Below are positions 2 to 14,164 of a DNA stretch of 32,376 nucleotides, piece by piece; the stretch's first letter is position 1; the number at the start of each line of letters is the position of its first letter. The position numbers and the translations under genes are program-made. The notes under the pieces were generated by a model, which saw only the letters and a program-made list of their open reading frames with translations, searched no databases and was not told the DNA's origin. This stretch comes from Gemmatimonadales bacterium (GTDB taxonomy: Bacteria; Gemmatimonadota; Gemmatimonadetes; Gemmatimonadales; GWC2-71-9): positions 1 through 32,376 of the forward strand of contig JACDBX010000160.1 of NCBI GenBank assembly GCA_013694695.1. The letters are read 5' to 3'.

Positions 2-145
2 ACGCGGCAGGCTCACGCGGCGTTGCAGCGCCAGCTCGCCCGGGCGGAAGCCCGTGCCGCACGCGCCGAGGCGCTCATCGAGCTCCAAAAAAAAGTCGCG
101 GCGCTGTTCGGGGAGACGCTCCCCGAGATCGACGAGCAGCCATGA
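2..145 (+). CDS. IS3-family transposase OrfA, C-terminal fragment (partial at window edge)
   Basis: Frame 2 reads TRQAHAALQRQLARAEARAARAEALIELQKKVAALFGETLPEIDEQP*, an alanine/leucine coiled-coil-like OrfA tail ending at TGA 143-145, overlapping the orfB ATG at 142. Confidence 0.7.
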   Translation, partial: TRQAHAALQRQLARAEARAARAEALIELQKKVAALFGETLPEIDEQP

Positions 146-1143
146 TCCCGATCATCGCGGCCCATCGTCATCTGGGCGTGCGCCGCTGCTGCCGGACCCT
201 CGAGGTGGCGCCCGCCACCTACTATCGCGCCCAGCGGCCCGTCACCGCGCGCGCACCGATCCTGCGTCCGTCGTCGCCGCGCGCGTTGCAGCCGGCCGAA
301 CGGGCGGCGGTGCTCGACGTGCTGCATGCCCCGCGGTTCGTCGACCTGGCACCCGCCGCCGTGCATGCCACGCTGCTGGACGACGGCACCTATCTCTGTT
401 CGGTCCGCACGATGTATCGCGTGCTGGGGGGCGGGCGGGAGCGGCGTGCCCAGCGTCGGCATCCGGCCTACGCCAAGCCGGAGTTGCTGGCGACCGCCCC
501 CAACCAGCTCTGGAGCTGGGACATCACCAAGCTGCGTGGGCCCGGGCGCGGCGTGTGGTATGCGCTCTACGTCGTGCTCGATGTGTTCAGTCGCTACGTG
601 GTGGGATGGCGGCTCGCCCCGCGCGAACGCGGGGAGCTGGCGGAGGAGCTGTTCCGCTGGTGCCGAGGGCAGCAAGGCCTGCCGGTCGGTGCGGGCCTCA
701 CGATCCATGCCGATCGCGGTGCGCCGATGACCGGCAAACCGGTGAGCGAGCTGCTCGTGGCGCTCGGGATCACGCGCAGTCACTCGCGGCCCCACGTGCC
801 CAACGACAACCCGTACTCCGAACCACAGTTCAAGACGCTCAAGTATCACGCGACCTTCCCGGGACGGTTCGGGAGCCTGGAGGATGCCCAGACGTACTGC
901 CGGGCGTTCTTCCGGTGGTACAACACGATGCACCGGCATAGCGGGCTCGGGATGCACACGCCGCACGACGTGCACACCGGCGCGGCGACGGCGCGGCAGG
1001 CCGCCCGCGCCGCGGTGCTGCGCGCGGCCTATGGCCGCCACCCGGAGCGGTTCGTCCACCGCGTGCCGGTCCCACCGACGCTGCCGACGGAGGCCTGGAT
1101 CAACAAGCCGTCGGCGGCGCTGCTCACGAGCGCAGGACAGTAA
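142..1143 (+). CDS. IS3-family transposase OrfB (DDE integrase core)
   Basis: 333 aa; WSWDITKLRG (first D), IHADRGAPMTGK (second D), NDNPYSEPQFKTLKYH (E), FFRWYNTMHRHSGLGMHTP, all typical of IS3 OrfB/rve. Confidence 0.93.
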   Translation: MIPIIAAHRHLGVRRCCRTLEVAPATYYRAQRPVTARAPILRPSSPRALQPAERAAVLDVLHAPRFVDLAPAAVHATLLDDGTYLCSVRTMYRVLGGGRERRAQRRHPAYAKPELLATAPNQLWSWDITKLRGPGRGVWYALYVVLDVFSRYVVGWRLAPRERGELAEELFRWCRGQQGLPVGAGLTIHADRGAPMTGKPVSELLVALGITRSHSRPHVPNDNPYSEPQFKTLKYHATFPGRFGSLEDAQTYCRAFFRWYNTMHRHSGLGMHTPHDVHTGAATARQAARAAVLRAAYGRHPERFVHRVPVPPTLPTEAWINKPSAALLTSAGQ

Positions 1144-3447: not shown

Positions 3448-3726
3448 CAGGCTAGACTCCGCCTGCGCCCCGGTATGAGGGCGTTCAGCCCATTGCCGTA
3501 CCGAACTCGAATGCGGCCCAGTCTGGGGCATAGGTAGACGATTGCCTCAGTTTCCACGAACCCCTTTGCGCGCACGCGGGCGCGAGGGAACCGATTGGTT
3601 CCGCCGTTCCTTCCGCCGTTGGGATCGGCAGGGAGCCTAACACCGACCTCACAAACAGGTCAGGTTGCCCGGTCTAATCGCGTTTTCACGGCTTTTGGCA
3701 CTGGTTTGTGGGGGTGGGTGTGTCGG

Positions 3727-3768
3727 CTCCGGAGCAAGAGGTCGCGCGTTCGAATCGCGCCGGGCCCA
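3727..3768 (+). tRNA. tRNA-Arg(CCG)-like 3' half only (anticodon loop to discriminator base); 5' half missing, probable attachment-site remnant
   Basis: CTCCGGA loop (anticodon CCG), GCAAG 3' anticodon stem, AGGTC, T-arm GCGCG-TTCGAAT-CGCGC, CGGGCCC-A. The upstream sequence gtcgg does not pair with GCAAG, and no GGGCCCG 5' acceptor strand is present. Confidence 0.7.
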
Positions 3769-3935
3769 TTCTCAAGACCATATCCGGAACGCGCGACCAT
3801 ATCGCACGCGTGGAGCCCACCCTGCGGGTGGGCTCGCCTTCGGCTCGAATCGCGCCGGGCCCATTCTCAAGACCATATCCGGAACGCGCGACCATATCGC
3901 ACCCGTGGAGCCCACCCGCTTCGCGGGTGGGCCGG
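3750..3935. repeat. about 95-bp tandem direct repeat (about 1.9 copies): tRNA T-arm 3' end, flank and hairpin
   Basis: TCGAATCGCGCCGGGCCCATTCTCAAGACCATATCCGGAACGCGCGACCATATCGCAC(G/C)CGTGGAGCCCACCC at 3750 and again at 3845. Confidence 0.9.
3810..3856 (+). repeat. hairpin repeat family copy R1
   Basis: gtGGAGCCCACCCtgcGGGTGGGCTCgccttcggctcgaatcgcgcc; 10-bp perfect stem (3813-3822/3826-3835). Confidence 0.85.
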
Positions 3936-3950
3936 CCTGCGGCTCAGCCC
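3905..3950 (+). repeat. hairpin repeat family copy R2
   Basis: gtggaGCCCACCCGCttcGCGGGTGGGCcggcctgcggctcag; 10-bp stem (3910-3919/3923-3932). Confidence 0.85.
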
Positions 3951-3990
3951 CCTTCCCCCGCCAGAAGCGCCCGACTTCATTCCATGCTGT

Positions 3991-4006
3991 GCATATTATA
4001 ATATGC
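3991..4006. promoter_or_regulatory. perfect 16-bp palindrome, candidate antitoxin operator
   Basis: GCATATTATAATATGC, a perfect inverted repeat 4 bp upstream of the -35. Confidence 0.55.
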
Positions 4007-4010
4007 GTAG

Positions 4011-4038
4011 TTGACAAATACGAAAACCAAAATATACA
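4011..4038 (+). promoter_or_regulatory. promoter of the first hipBA-like module
   Basis: TTGACA (4011-4016), 16 bp, TATACA (4033-4038), 7 nt before the hipB1 ATG at 4046. Confidence 0.6.
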
Positions 4039-4045
4039 TTGTACC

Positions 4046-4411
4046 ATGCGTACGAAATCTGGAACTCTACCGGTCGAGGTCCGACTCGGCCTCCGCAAGC
4101 TTGGGAGCGACATCCGTCGCGCTCGGCTGGCACGGCGCATCCCGATGGCGTTGCTGGCCGACCGGGTCCAAGTCTCCCGGCTGACACTCGGCAAGGTCGA
4201 ACGGGGAGCGCCCACCGTCGCTGTCGGCACCTACGCCACGGTCCTCTGGGCGCTTGGTATGGGATCACGACTCCGTGACCTCGCTGACCCAGAAACCGAC
4301 AAAGTGGGACGAGACCTGGAGGAGGACCGCCTCCCGACCCGAGCATTCACCCCGACCTTGGCCACGCGGAGTCCGGCGACCCGCCGAACGAATCGGAGTG
4401 AGGAGTCGTGA
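4046..4411 (+). CDS. HipB-like XRE/HTH antitoxin (module 1)
   Basis: LGSDIRRARLARRIPMALLADRVQVSRLTLGKVERGAPTVAVGTYATVLWALGMGSRL helix-turn-helix; overlaps downstream hipA start (GTGA). Confidence 0.8.
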   Translation: MRTKSGTLPVEVRLGLRKLGSDIRRARLARRIPMALLADRVQVSRLTLGKVERGAPTVAVGTYATVLWALGMGSRLRDLADPETDKVGRDLEEDRLPTRAFTPTLATRSPATRRTNRSEES

Positions 4412-5688
4412 GCAGCCCTGATGCACTGGTCTATCTCGACACTGCAGAGGCACCACGGCTGGTTGGAAGTTTATGGACCAGCTCGAGGCACGGTCGGGAG
4501 TCCGCGTCGTTGGAGTTCGATCCCGATTGGCTGAAGGATCCGATTCATTTCGCGCTCGGGCCAGCAGTGGCACCGGGGCCGGGCCGGTTCGTGACGCCCG
4601 AGGGACATAGACTCTTCGGTGCCATTGGTGACTCCGCCCCTGATCGTTGGGGCCGCGGCCTCCTGCTTCAGCGCGAACGCCAGCGCGCAAGGGACGCCAA
4701 CGAAACGCCACGGGCGTTGCGTGAGTTGGACTATCTACTCGGTGTGGCTGACGGCACCCGGATGGGCGCCCTACGATTCAAGACGACCGTCAACGGCCCC
4801 TTCCTGGGTGAATCCGGGTCATCTCAGGTCCCGCCGCTTCTCGAGCTCCCCCATCTCATGCGGGCTGCCATGACCTTGGAGGCCGATGCGGATCACGCGG
4901 CGGTGCTCGACGCCCTGCGCGTGCTCCTTGCACCCGGCTCGTCCCTCGGTGGTGCCCGGCCCAAGGCTTCCGTGCGCGACCAATCGGGGCGCCTGTCGAT
5001 CGCCAAGTTCCCGAAGGCCACCGACACACGAGACGTGGCCCGTTGGGAAGCGGTCATGCTGCGGCTGGCAGACAAGGCCGGAATACCTGTGCCGGAGCAT
5101 CAGGTGTTTTCAATCGAAAACCGAAGCGTGCTCGTGATGGCCCGATTCGACCGTCGGGGTGAGTCTCGAGTCCCATTCCTTTCCGCGATGAGTCTGCTCA
5201 CCGCTCGTGACGGTGATGTGAGGAGCTACGTCGAGATTGCCGAGGAGCTCCGGCGTATCGAAGGCCCCGGCCGGGAGGGAGGGCCCGCACTGTGGCGCCG
5301 AATCGTGTTCAACATCCTCGCGTCCAATTTCGACGACCATCTCCGAAACCACGCGATTCTGTTTGATGGCGCGTATTGGGCGTTGTCACCAGCCTACGAC
5401 CTGAATCCTGTTCCCGCATATGAGCAGGGCAGAAAGCTGTCGACTGCAATTCACTTCGACGGCGATCAAACAGCCTCGCTCGAGGTGGCACTTGATGCAG
5501 CAAGTGAGTTCGACCTTGACGCACGGAACGCTCGCAACATCATCGGAGAAGTCGCGAAGGCGGTGGCACGCTGGAGGACTGAGGCGTTGGCCACGGGGAT
5601 CAAGCACGGCGAAATCGAAGAGATGGCGAGCGCATTCGAGCATCCGGAGGCCCACGCCGCTCAGCGACTCTCATCGGCTATCAGCTGA
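4408..5688 (+). CDS. HipA-like serine/threonine kinase toxin (module 1)
   Basis: DSAPDRWGRGLL, SLGGARPKA, ASNFDDHLRNHAILFD and LSPAYDLNP, typical HipA N- and C-domain motifs. Confidence 0.9.
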   Translation: MSSPDALVYLDTAEAPRLVGSLWTSSRHGRESASLEFDPDWLKDPIHFALGPAVAPGPGRFVTPEGHRLFGAIGDSAPDRWGRGLLLQRERQRARDANETPRALRELDYLLGVADGTRMGALRFKTTVNGPFLGESGSSQVPPLLELPHLMRAAMTLEADADHAAVLDALRVLLAPGSSLGGARPKASVRDQSGRLSIAKFPKATDTRDVARWEAVMLRLADKAGIPVPEHQVFSIENRSVLVMARFDRRGESRVPFLSAMSLLTARDGDVRSYVEIAEELRRIEGPGREGGPALWRRIVFNILASNFDDHLRNHAILFDGAYWALSPAYDLNPVPAYEQGRKLSTAIHFDGDQTASLEVALDAASEFDLDARNARNIIGEVAKAVARWRTEALATGIKHGEIEEMASAFEHPEAHAAQRLSSAIS

Positions 5689-5774
5689 TGTCGCCTACGA
5701 CCACCCCACTTCCTTGCCGGAGACTCCTTTCCTTGAGCGGATGGAGTCATGCCGCGAAACATTACAGCGCCACG

Positions 5775-7076
5775 CTAGGTTGCGGCCATCGTTCCCCTGC
5801 AGACTTGAAGCCGGGTTCCGATACGGCCCACCAAGTCATGAATAACGTCAGCATCGAGGCCTTCATCAATCGTCTTCGATTCAATTTGGTCCAGGACTTG
5901 ATCCGCCCCGTCAATCATCGCGATTACCCGACCGACCAGTTCTTCGTGTGGCACGCCCGCCGTCCCTGCAAGCTTCTTCCAGTCTGACAATCCAATCTTT
6001 CGCACCTCATACTCACGACCAATTCGCATCGCGAGCTTCACCCTGTGAAGCGGCTCCTCGGCATAGGGCAGGAAACTCGTGATGTCGTAGAATGGCGCCA
6101 ACCGACTCTCACCCGCGGCGGCGTGGAGCAAAGCAAAATTTTTCGCGTGCCCATCAGTCCCAACAATGATCCAGTTGAGCGCTATTGCGCCTAGAAATCG
6201 ATCCACATCTTCCGATGGCCGGGTAGAATAGTCCCGCAGTAGCTCGATGACGCTTCGAATCCCAGGGCCTCCCTCTGCCTCGTACTTTCCCATGGGCATC
6301 ATCCCAAGCGCTTGGCAGACATCTTCCTGGTGTATCCTGTGGTAGGTACCCCGAACCAAACGCCTATCGTATCGCTGAACTACAATTGCCGGTTCATCTT
6401 CAAATTTCATCACACTGCTTTGAACCGCGCCGAGGTCCAGTGCTCGAGCAAGAGCGAGACACAGATGCTCGTTTTCTGCAAACCCAACAAACTCTCCGGT
6501 AGGTGGTTTCAGGATCCTTGTCGTTGGGGTCCGGCCACCCGGGCGACCCCATCTTCCATCCTCCTCCAATAGCGCGATCTTCGGTTGTGCACCCGCCAGA
6601 CTGAATTGGCCCATCTTCCGAGATCCCGCCCCCAAGCTCCCGCGCTCACGTACTGCCTTCAAGTCTCGCGCAATTTCAGCCTCGGTAAGCCACTCGATCT
6701 CGGGCGCCGCCATCGGGTCCGCCAAAATTTTCTCCACCCGCTCCGGTTCGACAAACTGAACCGCGCCCGCGCAATCAGCTCCCATGAATTCGAGCAGTCC
6801 CGTCGGGCTCCTGACTGAGACACCAAATTGCCTTGCATACTGTTGAAGCGTCCGCTCATTGTCAGGTAGCAGGCCCCACAAGTACGCATTGATCTTGTCG
6901 TGCCCATGCCGTTCTGCAGCGAGCGGCATCGAAAGCGATAGCGGGTACGCACCGGGCGCATTCCGCCACCCCTCATCGTAGATGAACTCAAGTCCTCCGC
7001 TCCTTCCGTACACATTCCCGACCAGGACTCCGTTGCAGAGCGCTGTGAGCTTTGGTGGCTTATCGTTCATTCTCAT
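5775..7076 (-). CDS. hipA: HipA-like kinase toxin (module 2)
   Basis: SLAGAQPKIALL, VVQRYDR, HQEDVCQALG, GTDGHAKNFALL, LAPFYDITS, all HipA motifs. The start is probably MRMNDKPPK, overlapping the hipB stop. Confidence 0.92.
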   Translation of the reverse strand: MRMNDKPPKLTALCNGVLVGNVYGRSGGLEFIYDEGWRNAPGAYPLSLSMPLAAERHGHDKINAYLWGLLPDNERTLQQYARQFGVSVRSPTGLLEFMGADCAGAVQFVEPERVEKILADPMAAPEIEWLTEAEIARDLKAVRERGSLGAGSRKMGQFSLAGAQPKIALLEEDGRWGRPGGRTPTTRILKPPTGEFVGFAENEHLCLALARALDLGAVQSSVMKFEDEPAIVVQRYDRRLVRGTYHRIHQEDVCQALGMMPMGKYEAEGGPGIRSVIELLRDYSTRPSEDVDRFLGAIALNWIIVGTDGHAKNFALLHAAAGESRLAPFYDITSFLPYAEEPLHRVKLAMRIGREYEVRKIGLSDWKKLAGTAGVPHEELVGRVIAMIDGADQVLDQIESKTIDEGLDADVIHDLVGRIGTRLQVCRGTMAAT

Positions 7077-7374
7077 ACCCCTGTTTCCTCTCGCTAGGAT
7101 CGACCCTTCCACCCGCCAGTGCCACGACCTGGTCTAGACTCACCTCTTGGCTGTCCCGGCGATTGTCACGTGTCCCAATCTGAAATCTCAGTCCGAGCGC
7201 ATTCAGGGCTCTTAGAGCCAGACTCAAGTCCACGCTCCGCTTACCTGACTCCAGGTCGACGACCCATTTCCGACTCGCACCAACCCGTGCAGCAAGTTCC
7301 GCCTGCGTGAGCCCCTGCTTCCTTCGCTCCCCTCTGATCAACTGAGCCATCTCGAAAGCCGATCGCAGAAACAT
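7060..7374 (-). CDS. hipB: HipB-like XRE antitoxin (module 2)
   Basis: IRGERRKQGLTQAELAARVGASRKWVVDLESGKRSVDLSLALRALNALGLRFQI; AAGGAG Shine-Dalgarno upstream. Confidence 0.9.
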   Translation of the reverse strand: MFLRSAFEMAQLIRGERRKQGLTQAELAARVGASRKWVVDLESGKRSVDLSLALRALNALGLRFQIGTRDNRRDSQEVSLDQVVALAGGRVDPSERKQGYENER

Positions 7375-7401
7375 TTTGACTCCTTGGTTGCTCTCTCTAT
7401 T

Positions 7402-7498
7402 GTCACCGAAAGGTGTCTTTTATAATATGTAACCCATGGGTGTCTTTTATTGTTTGACACCGATAGGTTACATGATACAATTGTAACCGATCGGTGTC
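7402..7498. promoter_or_regulatory. array of four 16-bp HipB-type operators at exact 27-bp spacing
   Basis: GTCACCgaaaGGTGTC 7402-7417; GTAACCcatgGGTGTC 7429-7444; GACACCgataGGTTAC 7456-7471; GTAACCgatcGGTGTC 7483-7498. Confidence 0.88.
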
Positions 7499-7500
7499 AA
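7472..7500 (-). promoter_or_regulatory. promoter of hipBA module 2
   Basis: Minus strand TTGACA (7500-7495), 17 bp, TATCAT (7477-7472), interleaved with the operators. Confidence 0.7.
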
Positions 7501-7520
7501 TGGGAGGATGTGGCGTAGTC

Positions 7521-7552
7521 GGGCGGCTCGCCTTCGGCTTGAATCCGAATCC
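7521..7552 (+). repeat. hairpin repeat family half-copy R5
   Basis: gggcggctcgccttcggcttgaatccgaatcc matches the right half of R1/R4. Confidence 0.65.
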
Positions 7553-7566
7553 GCGAGGGGGGCGCT

Positions 7567-7841
<275 letters not shown>

Positions 7842-7842
7842 C

Positions 7843-7857
7843 GCCCCTCAGGGGCGA
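7843..7857 (+). terminator. small hairpin after the msrB pseudogene
   Basis: CGCCCC-TCA-GGGGCG; no clear T-tract. Confidence 0.35.
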
Positions 7858-7916
7858 GGCACGTATTCCATGACGAAGAAGACAGCTTATTCCTGGGCTT
7901 CCACCGCGTGGATCGT

Positions 7917-8462
7917 TTAAGGATTCGTTGAAGCGGTGACTGGCCGCGCCCCTGGCTTTGGCCGCACCTGATCCCGCCGGAGCCCGGCAGGCCACCCTTG
8001 GGGAAAGCGCGCGAACCGGGCGATCTGGTCCGTCGTGGACCCTCCAATCGGCACGATCGGGTGACGGAACTGGGTGGTGTTGGCAACGCCCGTCGTGATG
8101 AACCATGCGGGCGCAGTGAAGAAGGCGAACAACCCATTCGACGCCGTGCTGAGTGTCCCAAGCAACCCGGCAATGTTCACCGCGCCCGCCCTGGAGTTCC
8201 AGCCGATTACCCGACCACCCGCAACAGCCGCGCGGTGCACCACTTCAACCCCACGTGCGCCCAGAAACAGGACCGAATCATCGGTGACTGCGAGCAGTTC
8301 ACCGCCGGAGACCGACCCGTTCACCGGCTCAAACCATCCCCCATACCCTGACTGTTCCGTTTCTTGCGCCGTGGCCAACCACGTGACCGGGCCCGCCGTG
8401 CTGTGACAGCCGGACAGCGCGGTGATCAGGACCAGCGCGACCCCCCGGTTAGTGCCGGACAT
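7917..8462 (-). CDS. putative lipoprotein of unknown function
   Basis: MSGTNRGVALVLITALSGCHSTAG lipobox; its start overlaps the end of the upstream lipoprotein gene. Confidence 0.55.
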   Translation of the reverse strand: MSGTNRGVALVLITALSGCHSTAGPVTWLATAQETEQSGYGGWFEPVNGSVSGGELLAVTDDSVLFLGARGVEVVHRAAVAGGRVIGWNSRAGAVNIAGLLGTLSTASNGLFAFFTAPAWFITTGVANTTQFRHPIVPIGGSTTDQIARFARFPQGWPAGLRRDQVRPKPGARPVTASTNP

Positions 8463-9984
8463 AGGCCGACCCCCAGAAGATCGCATCCATCTCTGCTTCC
8501 TGCGACTTGTACGCGGGGGCGAGGGCGCGCATCATCGCCGCCGGGTCGAGCAGGAAGCGTGTCGCCTTGCCGTGATCCTCCTCGGCGAGCCACTCCTGGC
8601 GCATCCACTCCAGGTAGTAGCCGCGCGCTTCAAGAAAGAGTTCGAGTGACTTCGGTGGCGCGGGTAACTGATACCGCAGCGTGTATTCGTCGCCGGGCAT
8701 CGAGGTGACCGCGGCGCTTCGGCTCCGAAAGGTGGCGAGCGCGACCATGTTCTTCCGACCGTCGCGCATCACCACGGTCGGCTCCAGTCGTACCGCAGCC
8801 GCTGCGGGAGCGAGGTTCGCCAGCGCGATCCAATCGAGTCGCCAGAGTCCCTGCGTCATCCGCAGGCGGACCCGCGTCGTGCCGTGCTGCACAGGGAGTG
8901 GCACGACCTTGGTGTCGGTCGCCAGCGGTCCGGTCTCCCCGACCATGCCGACCGTGATCCACCCACCCTCTGCGTCGGGCACCTGCACCTCGATCCGACC
9001 GAGGACCTTTCCGATCCCGGCTACCATCGGCGATTCAATGCCGGCGTCGAGGCGCGCGAGGAGCGGCGCGGCCTCCGTGCCGAGATAGGCCAGTCCCTGA
9101 TAGAGCACGAAGGTGGAGAGGAGCGACTGCCGCGTGGCGAGGATGAGTCCCTGCTGTCCCGATCGCGTCGGGAAGCTCAGCTCCACGACTTCGCGTGCCG
9201 CAAGGTCGGTGGAGTCGGTGGTGGAGAGCCGATACTCGCCATCGAAGTTCCGGACAGCTGGGAGACAATCACCTTCGGCGCCGCGGCACATCACCGGAGC
9301 AGTGATCGCGGTGGCGGCGTGGAAGGTCCCGCCGTCGTCCACCACAACGCGACCGTTCTTCGGCCGTGGGACGGCGAGCACGTCCACGTGTCGGACCACG
9401 TGGGTCTCGAACGCTTCGTTCTTCATCTGCACATCGAATGTCCGACTCGTCCCCTGCGCGTGCCAGAGGGCGTCGAGATCCGTCGCCTCGAGCGCCGGGG
9501 CGATGCTGGCCGAGAAGCCTTCCGCCTGAAGGTGCTGGCCGGTGGAGTCGGCGATGTAGAAGGTCGGGCAGGATCCGAAGCAGGCTTTGGGGTTGGTGAG
9601 ACAGAAGCCCGCGACCGCGGCCGTGATCCCCGTCATCACAGTCAGCGCGGTCTTGGCGCCTGACCCGCGGACGACGTTGGTCTCGAAGAGTGCGACGGAG
9701 GCGACACCGATGGAGAGGAGTCCCTGTTGCAGCGTATCGCGATTGACGCCCAGGAGCGCACCGGTTCCCTGGATCCGGTTGGAGGTGGAATCCACGTTCC
9801 ACTGCCCGAGGACATACATCGTTCCGTCGCGCAGGTGCGCCTTGAGGAAAGGCGACTTGTGGTCGAGGGTCGCGACGGCACTGGCCGGGACGAGCGTCCG
9901 GTTGACCTGTTGGAAGTTGCAGGAGCCAAGGAGCGCAAGTGCGAGTGCGAGTGCGATCAGAGCCGTGAGACGGGCATAAGGCAC
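8449..9984 (-). CDS. putative lipoprotein, about 511 aa, unknown function
   Basis: GTG start gives VPYARLTALIALALALALLGSCNFQQ (lipobox). The longer ORF start at 10212 runs through repeat sequence and is rejected. Confidence 0.65.
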   Translation of the reverse strand: MPYARLTALIALALALALLGSCNFQQVNRTLVPASAVATLDHKSPFLKAHLRDGTMYVLGQWNVDSTSNRIQGTGALLGVNRDTLQQGLLSIGVASVALFETNVVRGSGAKTALTVMTGITAAVAGFCLTNPKACFGSCPTFYIADSTGQHLQAEGFSASIAPALEATDLDALWHAQGTSRTFDVQMKNEAFETHVVRHVDVLAVPRPKNGRVVVDDGGTFHAATAITAPVMCRGAEGDCLPAVRNFDGEYRLSTTDSTDLAAREVVELSFPTRSGQQGLILATRQSLLSTFVLYQGLAYLGTEAAPLLARLDAGIESPMVAGIGKVLGRIEVQVPDAEGGWITVGMVGETGPLATDTKVVPLPVQHGTTRVRLRMTQGLWRLDWIALANLAPAAAAVRLEPTVVMRDGRKNMVALATFRSRSAAVTSMPGDEYTLRYQLPAPPKSLELFLEARGYYLEWMRQEWLAEEDHGKATRFLLDPAAMMRALAPAYKSQEAEMDAIFWGSAYVRH

Positions 9985-10087
9985 GGGGCACTCCGGTATG
10001 GAGGGTGAGAGAGGATACGTCGCGGGTTGGGCGGCGTCAATTCGCGGCGCTTCGCGAAGGGGACGTCTCCCCCGATATCCGGCCAAC

Positions 10088-10120
10088 GCGGGCGGGCTCG
10101 CCTTCGGCTCGAATCGCGCC
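10088..10120 (+). repeat. hairpin repeat family half-copy R3
   Basis: gcgggcgggctcgccttcggctcgaatcgcgcc; ends 4 bp from the hipA3 stop. Confidence 0.75.
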
Positions 10121-10123
10121 AGC

Positions 10124-11458
10124 CTAAACAAAGTGCCTGAATGAGCTCCTGATCGTCTCGATCTCCGCCTTTCCCAGCCCCGCGTTCTCAGCTTCTTGCG
10201 GCCAGAACGCAATAGCCTCTTCTACGTCCCGCAGGACTTCGCGCCCGTCTGCGGGGAGGTTGAACTTCGCCCCAACGGCGAGGAGATCCTCCCGCGTGAA
10301 GCCGTCATCCTTTCCATTCACCCGCATCTGATGCGTGGCTGCCCACCGTCCGCCGACCGCGTGGATGAGGTCATATGCCGGCGCGAGAGACCACTTGCCG
10401 GACGAATCCATTAGGAAAGCAAAGTTCTTGACGTGATCGTCCTGATTCCGGGCAGCGAGATTGAACACCATCCGACGGTACGCCTCCACCAGTGCCGGTG
10501 CGCCAAGCTCCATCTGCTGGATCGTGCGGAAATATTGCTCGTAAGTGACCACCTGCCGGATGTTGTAATCAGCGTGGAGCAGGCCACCCAGGCTGTGCAT
10601 GTGGAGCCGTTCGCTCCCAACTCGATCGAATCGCTTCGTCATGAAATGCGCGTAGTCGCGTTCACGAAGCAGGTGCGTATCGGCCATCGTGATCTTCGCG
10701 CGGCGCGCCAGCTTCGAGTAGGCGTATTCGATCCGCCCAAATGGACCGGGCCGGAAATCTTTCGCCAGTTCGTGGCCACCAATGGCAGGGGTCACGCCGT
10801 CAAACTTGACGAGCCACGCCTCCTCTCCCTGTTCGGGAACCGCGAAGCCCGACCGTACCCGGTCTCGGGTGGGGTCCCAGAGTATCAGACCCTTCGCGCG
10901 CGCTCCACCGGCCGTCGCCCCGACCTGCATGATTTCGGGAATCGCAACGGTGGTGTCGCCCTCGATGACACGGCGCGCTTGATCCACCAGACTGGCGATC
11001 TCAAGCGCCTCCTCAGTGAGCTCAGGCGTTCGCATCCGGGTCGGCGGATGAAACTCCAATGCCCCCATGCCGCGCCGACCGACGTAAAGCAATCGCTGCA
11101 CCGGACTCAGCGATGCATTCGGTCGGCCCTGTTGTTCGAAGTACCGTGCGATGATGGCGTTTCCGAACGCATCTGGAAGACTGTCGGCCAACACACCAGG
11201 CAGGCCCATGAATGACTCCGACCTGGCCAATTCGTCGAATGTCTGCGGACCTTTCCGCGACAGTGGGAGATTGATCGGTGAAATCTCAAGCCCTGACGTT
11301 CGGAACGGGTTGGCATACTCGAAGACAACCCGTCCCGTCTGAGGCTCCTCCGCAATCGCACCGACTTCGTGCCCCCACAGGTGTACGGTTGCGACCGCCC
11401 CACGATCGGGCGAACGCCGCCTAACCGTGTTTGCTGATCTGGGACCCGGCGTTGTCAT
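10124..11458 (-). CDS. HipA-like kinase toxin (module 3)
   Basis: TAGGARAKGLILWDP, MTKRFDR, AARNQDDHVKNFAFLMD, SLAPAYDLIHA; ATGA overlap with its antitoxin. Confidence 0.92.
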   Translation of the reverse strand: MTTPGPRSANTVRRRSPDRGAVATVHLWGHEVGAIAEEPQTGRVVFEYANPFRTSGLEISPINLPLSRKGPQTFDELARSESFMGLPGVLADSLPDAFGNAIIARYFEQQGRPNASLSPVQRLLYVGRRGMGALEFHPPTRMRTPELTEEALEIASLVDQARRVIEGDTTVAIPEIMQVGATAGGARAKGLILWDPTRDRVRSGFAVPEQGEEAWLVKFDGVTPAIGGHELAKDFRPGPFGRIEYAYSKLARRAKITMADTHLLRERDYAHFMTKRFDRVGSERLHMHSLGGLLHADYNIRQVVTYEQYFRTIQQMELGAPALVEAYRRMVFNLAARNQDDHVKNFAFLMDSSGKWSLAPAYDLIHAVGGRWAATHQMRVNGKDDGFTREDLLAVGAKFNLPADGREVLRDVEEAIAFWPQEAENAGLGKAEIETIRSSFRHFV

Positions 11459-11832
11459 GTCGCATCGCCTGCCCGCGGCCGGTTGGTGCTATCAGACCCA
11501 GCCCCTCCCTCCCCCGCGGTATGCGGGCCGGAACCGCTCGCCCGTTGGCGAACGCGCCCACCGAGGCGCGCCATCTGGATCGGAGAAATCGTCGGGACAG
11601 GCAGAAATGCGTCCAGCGCCTCCAAGCGCCCCAGCGCCCTGAGCAACTGGACTACCGTCATCAGCGATGGGCGGCTCTCTCCGGCCTCGGCCCTTCGAGC
11701 CGTGCGGTAGCTGACACCGGCTGAGCGCGCGAGCTCCTCGAGGGTACGATTCTGTTGAAGTCGGTAGCGCTCCAGACGCGCCCCGACTTCCTGAACCACC
11801 TCACTATCGGTCATACCGTTTACGATTTGCAT
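11455..11832 (-). CDS. HipB-like XRE antitoxin (module 3)
   Basis: MQIVNGMTDSEVVQEVGARLERYRLQQNRTLEELARSAGVSYRTARRAEAGESRPSLMTVVQLLRALGRLEAL, a helix-turn-helix. The ORF is open from 11871; the start is uncertain. Confidence 0.82.
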   Translation of the reverse strand: MQIVNGMTDSEVVQEVGARLERYRLQQNRTLEELARSAGVSYRTARRAEAGESRPSLMTVVQLLRALGRLEALDAFLPVPTISPIQMARLGGRVRQRASGSGPHTAGEGGAGSDSTNRPRAGDAT

Positions 11833-11891
11833 GGACGTTGCCTCGTCACAATAGGCCTTGAATGGCCACAACTACCATAATACCAGTATAG

Positions 11892-11967
11892 TGGTCCGGT
11901 TATGGACTATAAGGTATCGCAACATAGGCATTCTGACAACGCCGAATAATAGTCCGAATATGGACCA
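11892..11967. promoter_or_regulatory. two 18-bp palindromic operators for module 3
   Basis: TGGTCCggttatGGACTA (11892-11909) and TAGTCCgaatatGGACCA (11950-11967); the two are near reverse complements of each other. Confidence 0.75.
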
Positions 11968-12256
11968 TCACATGCATTCGATGCGCCTCGTCGGTCATAT
12001 ATGGCCTATTATGTTGGCTTCACATCTTCGTGAGTCCGCTCGCTTCTTGGGTCAGACGAGATCCGCCTGTTCATCGATGAAGCGGCCAAGGCGGGGCTGG
12101 GATTGAGGGGGCGCAATCGCACCGGTGGCATGTCGTAGCCTGCGGCATGTGGGGTCACGGCGGACAGGAAAACCGAAACCGCCCCGCAGGCGTTGTGTTG
12201 GCATGAACCCCTACACGCACCCCGGCTCAACCTCCCGCAGGCGAAAGGACCACATC

Positions 12257-12820
12257 ATGAACGGATCCATCCGGCACGCGGCGAAGGCGGCCGCCGTGCT
12301 CCTCTCGATGGCCTGTGCGGCCACGCCGCCGGCGCCGGCCCAGGGCAACCCCGCTCGTCCCGCCACCATGGGGTCATTCGTCAAGCCGAGTGATGCAACG
12401 CTGAAGAAGATGCTCACGCCGATCCAGTACGCGGTGACGCAGCACGACGCCACCGAGCGGCCGTTCCACAACGAGTTCTGGGACAACCACGCCGCCGGCA
12501 TCTATGTCGACGTGGTGTCGGGCGAGGCGCTGTTCAGCTCCGTTGACAAGTACGAGTCGCACACCGGCTGGCCGTCGTTCACGCGGCCGCTCGAGCCCGG
12601 CAACCTGCGCACCGCCAACGACAAGGCCTTGGGGATGGACCGCACCGAGGTCCGCTCGCTGGCAGCAAACTCACACCTGGGCCACATCTTCGACGACGGG
12701 CCCCGACCCACCGGCCTGCGCTACTGCATCAACTCGGCGGCACTCCGATTCATTCCGGTCGCGAAGCTCCAGGCCGAGGGGTACGGCAAGTACCTGCCGC
12801 TGTTCAAGAAGGGGGCGTAG
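12257..12820 (+). CDS. msrB: exported peptide-methionine (R)-S-oxide reductase
   Basis: [59 protein letters not shown] (catalytic Cys); signal/lipobox [22 protein letters not shown]. Confidence 0.93.
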
Positions 12821-12902
12821 CGCGCCTCAGCGGAGCGCCAGGCCCATAAGCCACGCGATAGGTAACGCGCCGCGGAGCCCTTGCTCCGATGTCCGATCTG
12901 GG

Positions 12903-14006
12903 TCAATGGGGAGCCAGAAAGTATCCAACTCCTCGTCCACCGGCCTCGTTGCGTGCGAGTATCCGCCGTGCGACCAGATCGGTGATGTCACGCAGCGCCG
13001 TGTCCGGCGAAGTCGACGTCATCCGTGCCCACTTGGACGAGGTCATTTTTCCTTCAAATCCACTCAACATCCGGTCGATGACCTTGCGTTGCCGGTCATT
13101 GAGCGGCTGGTCTCGAAGCGCCTCCCAATACCGTGCTTTGCGCAACACACCTTCCAGCGTTGTATCCGCCCCCGCGATCGCCCGATCCAGGCAATTCAGG
13201 AACCACTCCAGCCAATCCGTAACATCCAACTGCCCTCGCTGCGTTGCCTCCAGCACATCGTAGTAGTTTTTCCGCTCCAGGCGAATCTGCGCAGACATGC
13301 TATAGAAGCGTTGTGTACTTTCCTCCGACCGAGCCAGCGCCATGTCCGCAATGGCACGCGCAATCCTCCCGTTGCCATCATCAAATGGATGGATCGTGAC
13401 AAACCACAGATGTGCGAGCGCAGCTTTGATAACTGGGTCGATTTCTGCCTTGTCGGCGAACCATCGAAGGAACGCTTTCATCTCGACGGTCAAGCGCTCG
13501 GCCGCGGGTGCTTCATAGTGAACACGCTCCTTTCCCATTGGGCCTGAGACCACCTGCATCGGCCCTGAAGCGTCGTCGCGCCAGGCACCGACGATGAGCT
13601 TGTTGATGCCGCTTCGCCCGGTTGGAAAGAGTGCAGCGTGCCATCCGGACAGCCTTTCTTCGGTGAGGGGCGTGTCGTACCTCTGTGTGGCATCAAGCAT
13701 CATTTCCACGACGCCGTCAACGTGACGATCCTTGGGGGCTAGCGCACCGATATCCATTCCAAGCCTGCGTGCAATCGAAGAGCGTACCTGCTCCTGGTCC
13801 AGCTTTTCACCCTCGATCTCGCTGGACTTGAGAACATCCTGTGTCAGGGTGAGGAGCACCGCCTCAGCGCGCATCGGGAAGCCCAAGGCTTCCATGCGTC
13901 CAACGAGGCGCCCTTGCCGATGACGCACTTCAGCCAGGCGCTGAGCGAGCGCACCCTCATCCCATCGAAAGTTTGGCCAGGTCGTCAGTTCGTGAATGTA
14001 GGTCAT
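12903..14006 (-). CDS. Fic family protein (DUF4172-type N-terminus, likely AMP transferase)
   Basis: HPFDDGNGRIAR Fic motif; SSEIEG N-terminal inhibitory-like motif; C-terminal winged-helix-like region; AGGAGG upstream of the ATG. Confidence 0.92.
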   Translation of the reverse strand: MTYIHELTTWPNFRWDEGALAQRLAEVRHRQGRLVGRMEALGFPMRAEAVLLTLTQDVLKSSEIEGEKLDQEQVRSSIARRLGMDIGALAPKDRHVDGVVEMMLDATQRYDTPLTEERLSGWHAALFPTGRSGINKLIVGAWRDDASGPMQVVSGPMGKERVHYEAPAAERLTVEMKAFLRWFADKAEIDPVIKAALAHLWFVTIHPFDDGNGRIARAIADMALARSEESTQRFYSMSAQIRLERKNYYDVLEATQRGQLDVTDWLEWFLNCLDRAIAGADTTLEGVLRKARYWEALRDQPLNDRQRKVIDRMLSGFEGKMTSSKWARMTSTSPDTALRDITDLVARRILARNEAGGRGVGYFLAPH

Positions 14007-14064
14007 CTTTCTCCGCACCTCCTGCGGACATTATGGCCTATAATCCCCGCAAAGGCAATAGCTA

Positions 14065-14085
14065 TCACCGCATGTTTTGCGGTGA
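14065..14085. promoter_or_regulatory. inverted repeat upstream of fic
   Basis: TCACCGCA-TGTTT-TGCGGTGA, perfect 8-bp arms. Confidence 0.5.
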
Positions 14086-14120
14086 TTAGGCCAGGTAATC
14101 GCCGCATGATAAGCGTCGGC

Positions 14121-14164
14121 GTGGAGCCCACCCGCTTCGCGGGCGGGCTCGCCTCCGGCTCGAT
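14121..14164 (+). repeat. hairpin repeat family copy R4
   Basis: gtgGAGCCCACCCGCttcGCGGGCGGGCTCgcctccggctcgatc; 12-bp stem with one mismatch. Confidence 0.85.

What the first reader, a model, noticed from the sequence alone, without database searches (positions are those of the whole stretch)
3727..14164. Toxin island in which every toxin module is bordered by the same hairpin repeat
Seen: five copies of one repeat (consensus gtGGAGCCCACCCGC-ttc-GCGGGTGGGCTCgccttcggctcgaatc[gcgcc]). R1/R2 end about 95 bp before hipB1. R5 begins about 150 bp before the hipB2 start. R3 ends 4 bp from the hipA3 stop. R4 lies about 115 bp upstream of the fic start. I noticed no copy near the housekeeping or polysaccharide genes. 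Inference: the repeats may mark boundaries or recombination points by which toxin modules (three HipBA plus Fic) accumulate as cassettes. They could also simply be a common genomic REP-like element.
Basis: partly seen in the sequence, partly recalled or inferred. Interest (0 to 1): 0.72.

Follow-up and report, generated by a model that had tools for sequence, protein, structure and literature searches.

The report
Hairpin inserts in displaced tRNA-end fragments
The repeats around these toxin genes are short DNA hairpins that in this bacterial genus sit at one exact spot, the T-loop, of leftover tRNA-gene ends created when mobile islands insert into tRNA genes, so they mark old insertion borders rather than toxin genes as such.

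Summary
The repeats are real: three full hairpins (R1, R2, R4) and two truncated copies (R3, R5). No further copy was found in the available genome (94% complete, 195 contigs). They are not a toxin-specific marker. Window 3727-3768 is identical to the 3' half of the genome's intact tRNA-Arg(CCG): a displaced attachment fragment of a tRNA integration hotspot. Relatives have such fragments at the same tRNA, and in one the fragment is followed by a HipBA 81-85% identical to the window's third HipBA.

The repeat is a 33-38 nt two-hairpin insert (62-67 nt variants elsewhere). I found 23 copies in six genomes of one Gemmatimonadota genus. All but two degenerate window copies (R2, R4) have recognisable tRNA T-arm on at least one side; where both sides survive, the hairpin lies exactly between T54 and T55, in displaced fragments of seven tRNAs (Arg, Pro, Ile, Asn, Met, Phe, Gly). 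Related fragments without it show a clean insertion, with no target duplication. I found none outside the genus.

Best reading: islands accumulate at tRNA genes through a tyrosine integrase, and a REP-like palindromic element then colonises the T-loops of the displaced fragments. Its transposase is unidentified. Cargo elsewhere is not toxin-specific.

The parts
3727..3768 (+). Displaced 3' fragment of tRNA-Arg(CCG), anticodon loop to discriminator, without hairpin (attR-type)
   Evidence: 42/42 identical to contig C142:1-42(-), where ARAGORN calls an intact tRNA-Arg(CCG)
3750..3844 (+). 95-bp unit 1: tRNA-Arg 3' end (T55 to discriminator) + ~60 nt + hairpin R1
   Evidence: tandem repeat family D5; tRNA identity
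3812..3844 (+). R1, hairpin insert (33 nt) followed directly by tRNA-Arg T55..3' end (19/19)
   Evidence: R1 model E=2.9e-4; fold z -3.8
3845..3939 (+). 95-bp unit 2 of the tandem duplication, ending in R2
3907..3943 (+). R2, hairpin insert; right tRNA side lost
   Evidence: R1 model E=1e-6; fold
4046..5688 (+). hipB1 (4046-4411) and hipA1 (4408-5688)
   Evidence: HipA_C 2.1e-46; couple_hipB weak 5e-6
5775..7374 (-). hipB2 (7060-7374) and hipA2 (5775-7112)
7401..7499 (.). Four operator-like palindromes upstream of hipB2 at 7401, 7428, 7455, 7482 (27-bp spacing)
   Evidence: direct sequence; family D14
7518..7545 (+). R5, truncated 3' half of the hairpin insert + T-loop-like TTGAATCC
   Evidence: 95% over 21 nt; does not fold
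7565..7861 (+). Truncated msrB copy, 91% to 12584-12840 (upstream piece also matches 12211-12251)
   Evidence: D1 and D9
10088..10120 (+). R3, truncated 3' half of the hairpin insert + 12 nt of tRNA-Arg T-loop/T-stem (TCGAATCGCGCC)
   Evidence: 97% to R1 tail; does not fold
10124..11871 (-). hipB3 (11455-11871) and hipA3 (10124-11458), 85% and 81% identical to HipBA behind the tRNA-Arg fragment of relative G084
12257..12820 (+). msrB (SelR domain), full copy
   Evidence: Pfam SelR 3.6e-45
12903..14018 (-). Fic protein, SoFic-like
   Evidence: Fic 1.1e-16, DUF4172 3.5e-33; PADLOC SoFic 1.8e-44
14123..14159 (+). R4, full hairpin insert with degenerate T-arm-like flanks
   Evidence: R1 model E=4.7e-8; fold z -2.7

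Best explanation
The region is part of a tRNA-Arg(CCG) integration hotspot. Mobile islands inserted, by tyrosine integrase, into the 3' half of the tRNA gene. Each insertion restored the tRNA and left a displaced 3' fragment at the far end; repeated insertions stacked cargo (here HipBA and Fic modules) downstream. The repeat is a separate ~38-nt palindromic mobile insert made of two hairpins (GGAGC-stem-GCTC + GCC-TNC-GGC). It inserts precisely between T54 and T55 of the T-loop of such displaced fragments, without target duplication. It is tolerated there because the fragment is redundant, whereas in a working tRNA gene it should be harmful. A GT(A/G)G head next to a palindrome is the known layout of REP elements mobilised by Y1/RAYT transposases, so a RAYT-like single-strand mechanism is the leading candidate. 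Shown: the fragment, the T-loop position, clean insertion, covariation, restriction to one genus. Inferred: the integrase model for this window, the transposase, and the order of events.
For: tRNA fragment at 3727-3768. The hotspot recurs: tRNA-Arg plus distal fragment(s) in G084 and G076, and two 1.9-2.4 kb cassettes ending in hairpin-bearing fragments in G079. Tyrosine integrase genes lie right beside tRNA-Arg and tRNA-Pro, with the same family beside Pro, Gly and Ile tRNAs. In the genus, 23 model hits with E<1e-3; all but R2 and R4 of the window have tRNA T-arm sequence of one of seven tRNAs on at least one side, and the insertion point is T54|T55. Filled and empty sites: G080 Ile (L127:8213) against G076 Ile (L182:14895), whose ~60-nt left flanks are mostly identical; G080 Gly (L118:711) against G076 Gly (L179:16213). 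Stem covariation: 10 cells changed on both sides, covariation score 0.184 against 0.067 shuffled, 0/500 shuffles as high. A pattern found 16 genus hits with 0 in the reversed control (three of them an unrelated repeat), and 2 hits in the rest of the family, where the reversed control gave more. One copy is reversed in a palindromic TTCGAA T-loop (L119/L082), so orientation is not dictated by the tRNA. Y1_Tnp genes occur in 5 of 6 hairpin-bearing genomes and 0 of 4 hairpin-less ones (Fisher p = 0.024). Published REP head: 5'-GT(A/G)G followed by a palindrome (PMC2817692). Some REPs insert within small palindromes (PMC3733652), and the T-arm is one.
Against: No hairpin copy lies near the Y1_Tnp genes, and G076 has hairpins but no detected Y1_Tnp. 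Copy number (0-7) is far below typical REPs. Within arrays, successive copies share private features (G079 CTACGGC loops; two G076 Pro copies with the same extra C; three 62-nt Asn copies), so some spread together with the fragment rather than by independent insertion. In this window only R1 and R3 keep clear tRNA-Arg sequence; R2 and R4 are degenerate. No integrase gene was identified in the window itself.
Confidence: 0.68

Rival explanations
1. The hairpin is a working part of an attachment site. Hairpin-bearing fragments are the ends of small cassettes that recombine at T55..3' end, so the hairpin travels with the cassette, loosely like the variable terminal structure of integron attC sites.
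For: Successive fragments in one array share private hairpin features; minimal units of 49-147 bp occur beside Met, Phe, Ile and Asn tRNAs, and a 95-bp tandem unit occurs in the window; in five hairpin copies the right (T55..3') block is perfect or nearly so while the left block is strongly decayed.
Against: Related fragments exist with and without the hairpin, and most elements with an intact integrase of this family (6 of 7 with an identified fragment) end in a hairpin-less one; one copy is reversed; no dedicated recombinase found; overall asymmetry of left/right decay is weak (mean 2.6 edits per 17 nt against 3.0 per 19 nt).
Confidence: 0.2
2. The hairpin arises by local tandem duplication or template switching at the tRNA end and terminator; it is not a mobile element.
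For: Short tandem units in the window and beside Met, Ile and Phe tRNAs, with similar sequence after both copies.
Against: One hairpin family with the same GGAGC/GCTCGCCTNCGGC ends occurs in seven tRNA contexts and six species at one nucleotide position; its sequence is not derived from any of these tRNA genes.
Confidence: 0.07
3. Ordinary dispersed REP element unrelated to tRNA or islands.
For: Palindrome with GT(A/G)G head; Y1_Tnp present in most hairpin-bearing genomes.
Against: All clear genus copies outside the window are in tRNA T-arms and copy number is 0-7.
Confidence: 0.03
4. Toxin-cassette boundary element specific to toxin-antitoxin modules.
For: In the window four toxin genes lie in repeat-bounded segments.
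Against: In relatives the same hairpin-bearing fragments border non-toxin cargo, and the middle window segment has no recognised toxin.
Confidence: 0.02

Closest known systems
tRNA-integrated genomic islands with tandem arrays (Islander type, PMC4383910)
   Same: Intact tRNA gene, displaced 3' tDNA fragment, adjacent tyrosine integrase, tandem elements at one tRNA; anticodon-loop start of the fragment is one of the known subsites
   Different: Displaced fragments here are often split in the T-loop by a hairpin insert; many cassettes lack an integrase
REP elements mobilised by RAYT/Y1 transposases (PMC2817692, PMC3733652, PMC8266576)
   Same: Short GC-rich palindrome, GT(A/G)G head, no target duplication, covarying stem, Y1_Tnp in most hairpin-bearing genomes; insertion into small palindromes has precedent
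   Different: 0-7 copies instead of tens to hundreds; strict T-loop position; no cognate copy beside the Y1_Tnp genes; second small hairpin GCC-TNC-GGC always attached
Integron attC sites and gene cassettes (own knowledge)
   Same: Cassette arrays with a structured hairpin at each boundary
   Different: No GTTRRRY core sites seen; boundaries are tRNA fragments; no integron integrase identified
Tycheposons (tRNA-linked mobile elements; named in PMC11389934, details from own knowledge)
   Same: tRNA-linked integrative elements with variable cargo
   Different: No T-loop hairpin inserts known to me

Membership tests
tRNA-integrated genomic island | Intact tRNA gene plus displaced 3' fragment in the same genome | tested here: met
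   tRNA-Arg(CCG) on C142 and 42/42 fragment at 3727-3768
tRNA-integrated genomic island | Fragment in correct orientation and on the same contig as the tRNA | tested here: inconclusive
   C142 breaks exactly at the tRNA 3' end, so linkage cannot be seen here; in G084 and G076 tRNA and fragment are linked, same orientation, 17-40 kb apart
tRNA-integrated genomic island | Integrase gene in the element | tested here: inconclusive
   None identified in the window; tyrosine integrases beside tRNA-Arg and tRNA-Pro in G076 and beside Gly, Ile, Pro tRNAs; that family has no hit in G000
REP/RAYT element | Short palindrome with 5' GT(A/G)G head | tested here: met
   GTGG-AGC palindrome in nearly all complete copies, the GT being G53-T54 of the tRNA
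REP/RAYT element | High copy number, dispersed extragenic | tested here: not met
   0-7 copies per genome, all clear ones in tRNA T-arms
REP/RAYT element | Cognate copies flank the RAYT gene | tested here: not met
   No significant model hit within ~1.5 kb of any Y1_Tnp gene
Integron attC | R' GTTRRRY / R'' core sites and integron integrase | tested here: not met
   Repeat sequences read by eye contain no GTTRRRY/RYYYAAC pair; no integron integrase among the window proteins scanned
HipBA type II toxin-antitoxin | HipA_C kinase domain with adjacent HTH antitoxin | tested here: met
   Three modules; toxicity not testable here

The most novel reading that the evidence does not exclude
A palindromic insert with single-nucleotide target specificity for the tRNA T-loop that is a functional part of the attachment sites of small tRNA-borne cassettes, either locking islands in place or serving as the recombination structure of a new cassette system in Gemmatimonadota.
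Probability: 0.2. Interest if true: 0.82.

Novelty: new variant of a known kind. Interest (0 to 1): 0.6.

Why it matters
Displaced tRNA fragments are normally used only as signposts for mapping islands. Here they are themselves the exclusive target of a tiny palindromic element, at one nucleotide position across seven tRNAs. That makes the target choice of REP-like elements testable, provides a molecular fossil for the order of island stacking, and breaks the assumption of island finders that the displaced fragment is contiguous: a split T-loop would hide such islands. It also explains why this toxin cluster sits where it does.

Tried and rejected
Rfam gave nothing relevant: one sub-threshold hit elsewhere in the window. 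ARAGORN finds no tRNA in the window because only a 3' fragment is present. Exact-pattern scans of viral contigs found no true copy. Phylum-wide patterns gave only chance-like hits outside the genus. RAYT as proven agent: rejected for lack of cognate copies nearby. Toxin-specific marking: rejected from cargo in relatives. A strong left/right decay asymmetry that would have proved crossover 3' of the hairpin was looked for and is not clear overall. Three G084 pattern hits (L074, L079, L080) are an unrelated repeat. A conserved chromosomal gene downstream of tRNA-Arg(CCG), which would fix the right end of the island, was not found. The literature searches found no description of T-loop hairpin inserts, but the library is open-access only.

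Full report
1. Observation. The five repeats are present. R1, R2 and R4 are complete two-hairpin inserts that fold better than shuffles (z -3.8, -3.5, -2.7). R3 and R5 are 3' halves that do not. R1 and R2 lie in a 95-bp tandem duplication. Mismatch-tolerant pattern, BLAST and covariance-model searches of the genome assembly (2.80 Mb, 195 contigs, 93.8% complete) found these copies only in this window. The model search scored only the best 150 candidates per genome, and copies could also be lost at assembly breaks.

2. The tRNA link. A BLAST of 3700-3970 against the own genome hit contig C142 bases 1-42 with 100% identity. ARAGORN calls an intact tRNA-Arg(CCG) there, and C142 stops exactly at its 3' end, as expected if the assembler met a repeated tRNA 3' half. 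Window 3727-3768 is therefore a displaced tRNA-Arg 3' fragment. R1 is followed by 19/19 nt of the same tRNA from T55, and R3 by 12 nt.

3. Hotspot in relatives. In the genus, tRNA-Arg(CCG) is followed by distal partial copies: 28 kb away in G084, 17 and 40 kb away in G076, and two 1.9-2.4 kb cassettes in G079. Tyrosine integrase genes lie beside tRNA-Arg and tRNA-Pro in G076, and members of that family beside Pro, Gly and Ile tRNAs. A HipBA 81-85% identical to HipBA3 of the window starts about 660 bp behind the G084 fragment. HipBA1, HipBA2, msrB and Fic have no close counterpart there; on the left the homology ends at the R3 border, on the right it ends without a repeat. So the modules did accumulate at this site, and one of the two testable breakpoints falls at a repeat.

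4. What the repeat is. In G079 the displaced tRNA-Arg fragment is split: GGTCGCGCGT | GGAGCTGCGCCCGCTCTGCGGGCTCGCTCGCCTACGGC | TCGAATCGCGCCGGGCCCA. A pattern built from this found 16 hits in the ten genus genomes (control 0) and chance-level hits in the other 92 family genomes. Three of the 16, all in G084, are an unrelated repeat. The covariance model (13 sequences, 38 columns) rests on a stem whose pairing and covariation score exceed all 500 shuffles; it gave 23 hits with E<1e-3 in six genomes. All except R2 and R4 of the window have T-arm sequence of tRNA-Arg, Pro, Ile, Asn, Met, Phe or Gly on at least one side; where both sides survive the insertion lies between T54 and T55. Longer 62-67 nt forms occur in Asn and Pro fragments. 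One G080 Gly copy is reversed, in a palindromic TTCGAA T-loop.

5. Clean insertion. Fragments without the hairpin exist in the same islands. Pairs such as G076 Ile (L182:14895, empty) and G080 Ile (L127:8213, filled), or G076 Gly and G080 Gly, show an insertion with no duplication or deletion. Hairpin-bearing fragments are more decayed (mean 4.5 edits per 25 nt left and 3.0 per 19 nt right, against 0.9 and 0.3 for hairpin-less ones). Where both kinds occur in one array the hairpin-less one tends to be nearest the tRNA. Fragments ending elements with an intact integrase of this family are usually hairpin-less (1 of 7 with hairpin against 20 of 28 of the rest, p about 0.01, a post hoc grouping). 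Two hairpin fragments lie about 200 bp from decayed integrase remnants.

6. Mechanism. The simplest account has two layers: ordinary integrase-driven stacking of islands at tRNA genes, then colonisation of the redundant T-loops by a REP-like palindrome. The head GTGG (GT from the tRNA) followed by a palindrome fits the published REP layout (PMC2817692). Insertion of some REPs within small palindromes has been described (PMC3733652). Y1_Tnp genes occur in 5 of 6 hairpin-bearing and 0 of 4 hairpin-less genomes, but the sample is small and no hairpin flanks those genes. The agent is therefore a candidate, not shown. The main rival is that the hairpin is part of the attachment site and travels with cassettes: private hairpin features are shared along arrays, and very short units of 49-147 bp occur beside several tRNAs.

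7. Toxin specificity. In relatives the bordered cargo is mixed, so the toxins in this window are cargo of a hotspot, not the reason for the repeats. MsrB is partly duplicated within the region, consistent with repeated rearrangement.

8. Novelty. The islands are of a known kind. A palindromic element restricted to one nucleotide position of tRNA T-loops was not found in the literature available here or outside this genus, within stated limits. I class it as a new variant of a known kind.

Noticed in passing
window 7401-7499: Four near-palindromic sites (TGTCACCGAAAGGTGTC type) at exact 27-bp spacing between hipB2 and R5: likely HipB2 operators.
   Followed up: partly
window 7565-7861 and 12211-12840: A truncated, internally deleted second copy of msrB lies directly behind R5, 91% identical to the full copy behind HipBA3.
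   Followed up: yes
window 142-1143: IS3-family transposase at the left end of the contig, in the material before the tRNA fragment.
   Followed up: no
window 7917-8486 and 8449-10212 (-): Two ORFs between R5 and R3 (189 and 587 aa) match no Pfam, PADLOC or NCBIfam family.
   Followed up: partly
L035:1339-7453 and L036:8744-10141 (G084): The G084 tRNA-Arg(CCG) island carries a type I restriction methylase (HsdM) and, just before the fragment, an E1-N/ThiF protein: defence-like cargo at the same hotspot.
   Followed up: no
L122:166-227, L122:313-374, L123:8779-8840 (G077): A 62-nt three-hairpin version of the insert sits in tRNA-Asn T-loops; a 67-nt version sits in a Pro fragment (L114:6593).
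   Followed up: partly
L179:14296, 16213, 19232 (G076): tRNA-Gly(CCC) array with 1.9 and 3.0 kb cassettes that share a conserved left flank (GGCGCTCGTGGGCGCTCG), resembling the flank of the G079 tRNA-Arg cassettes.
   Followed up: partly
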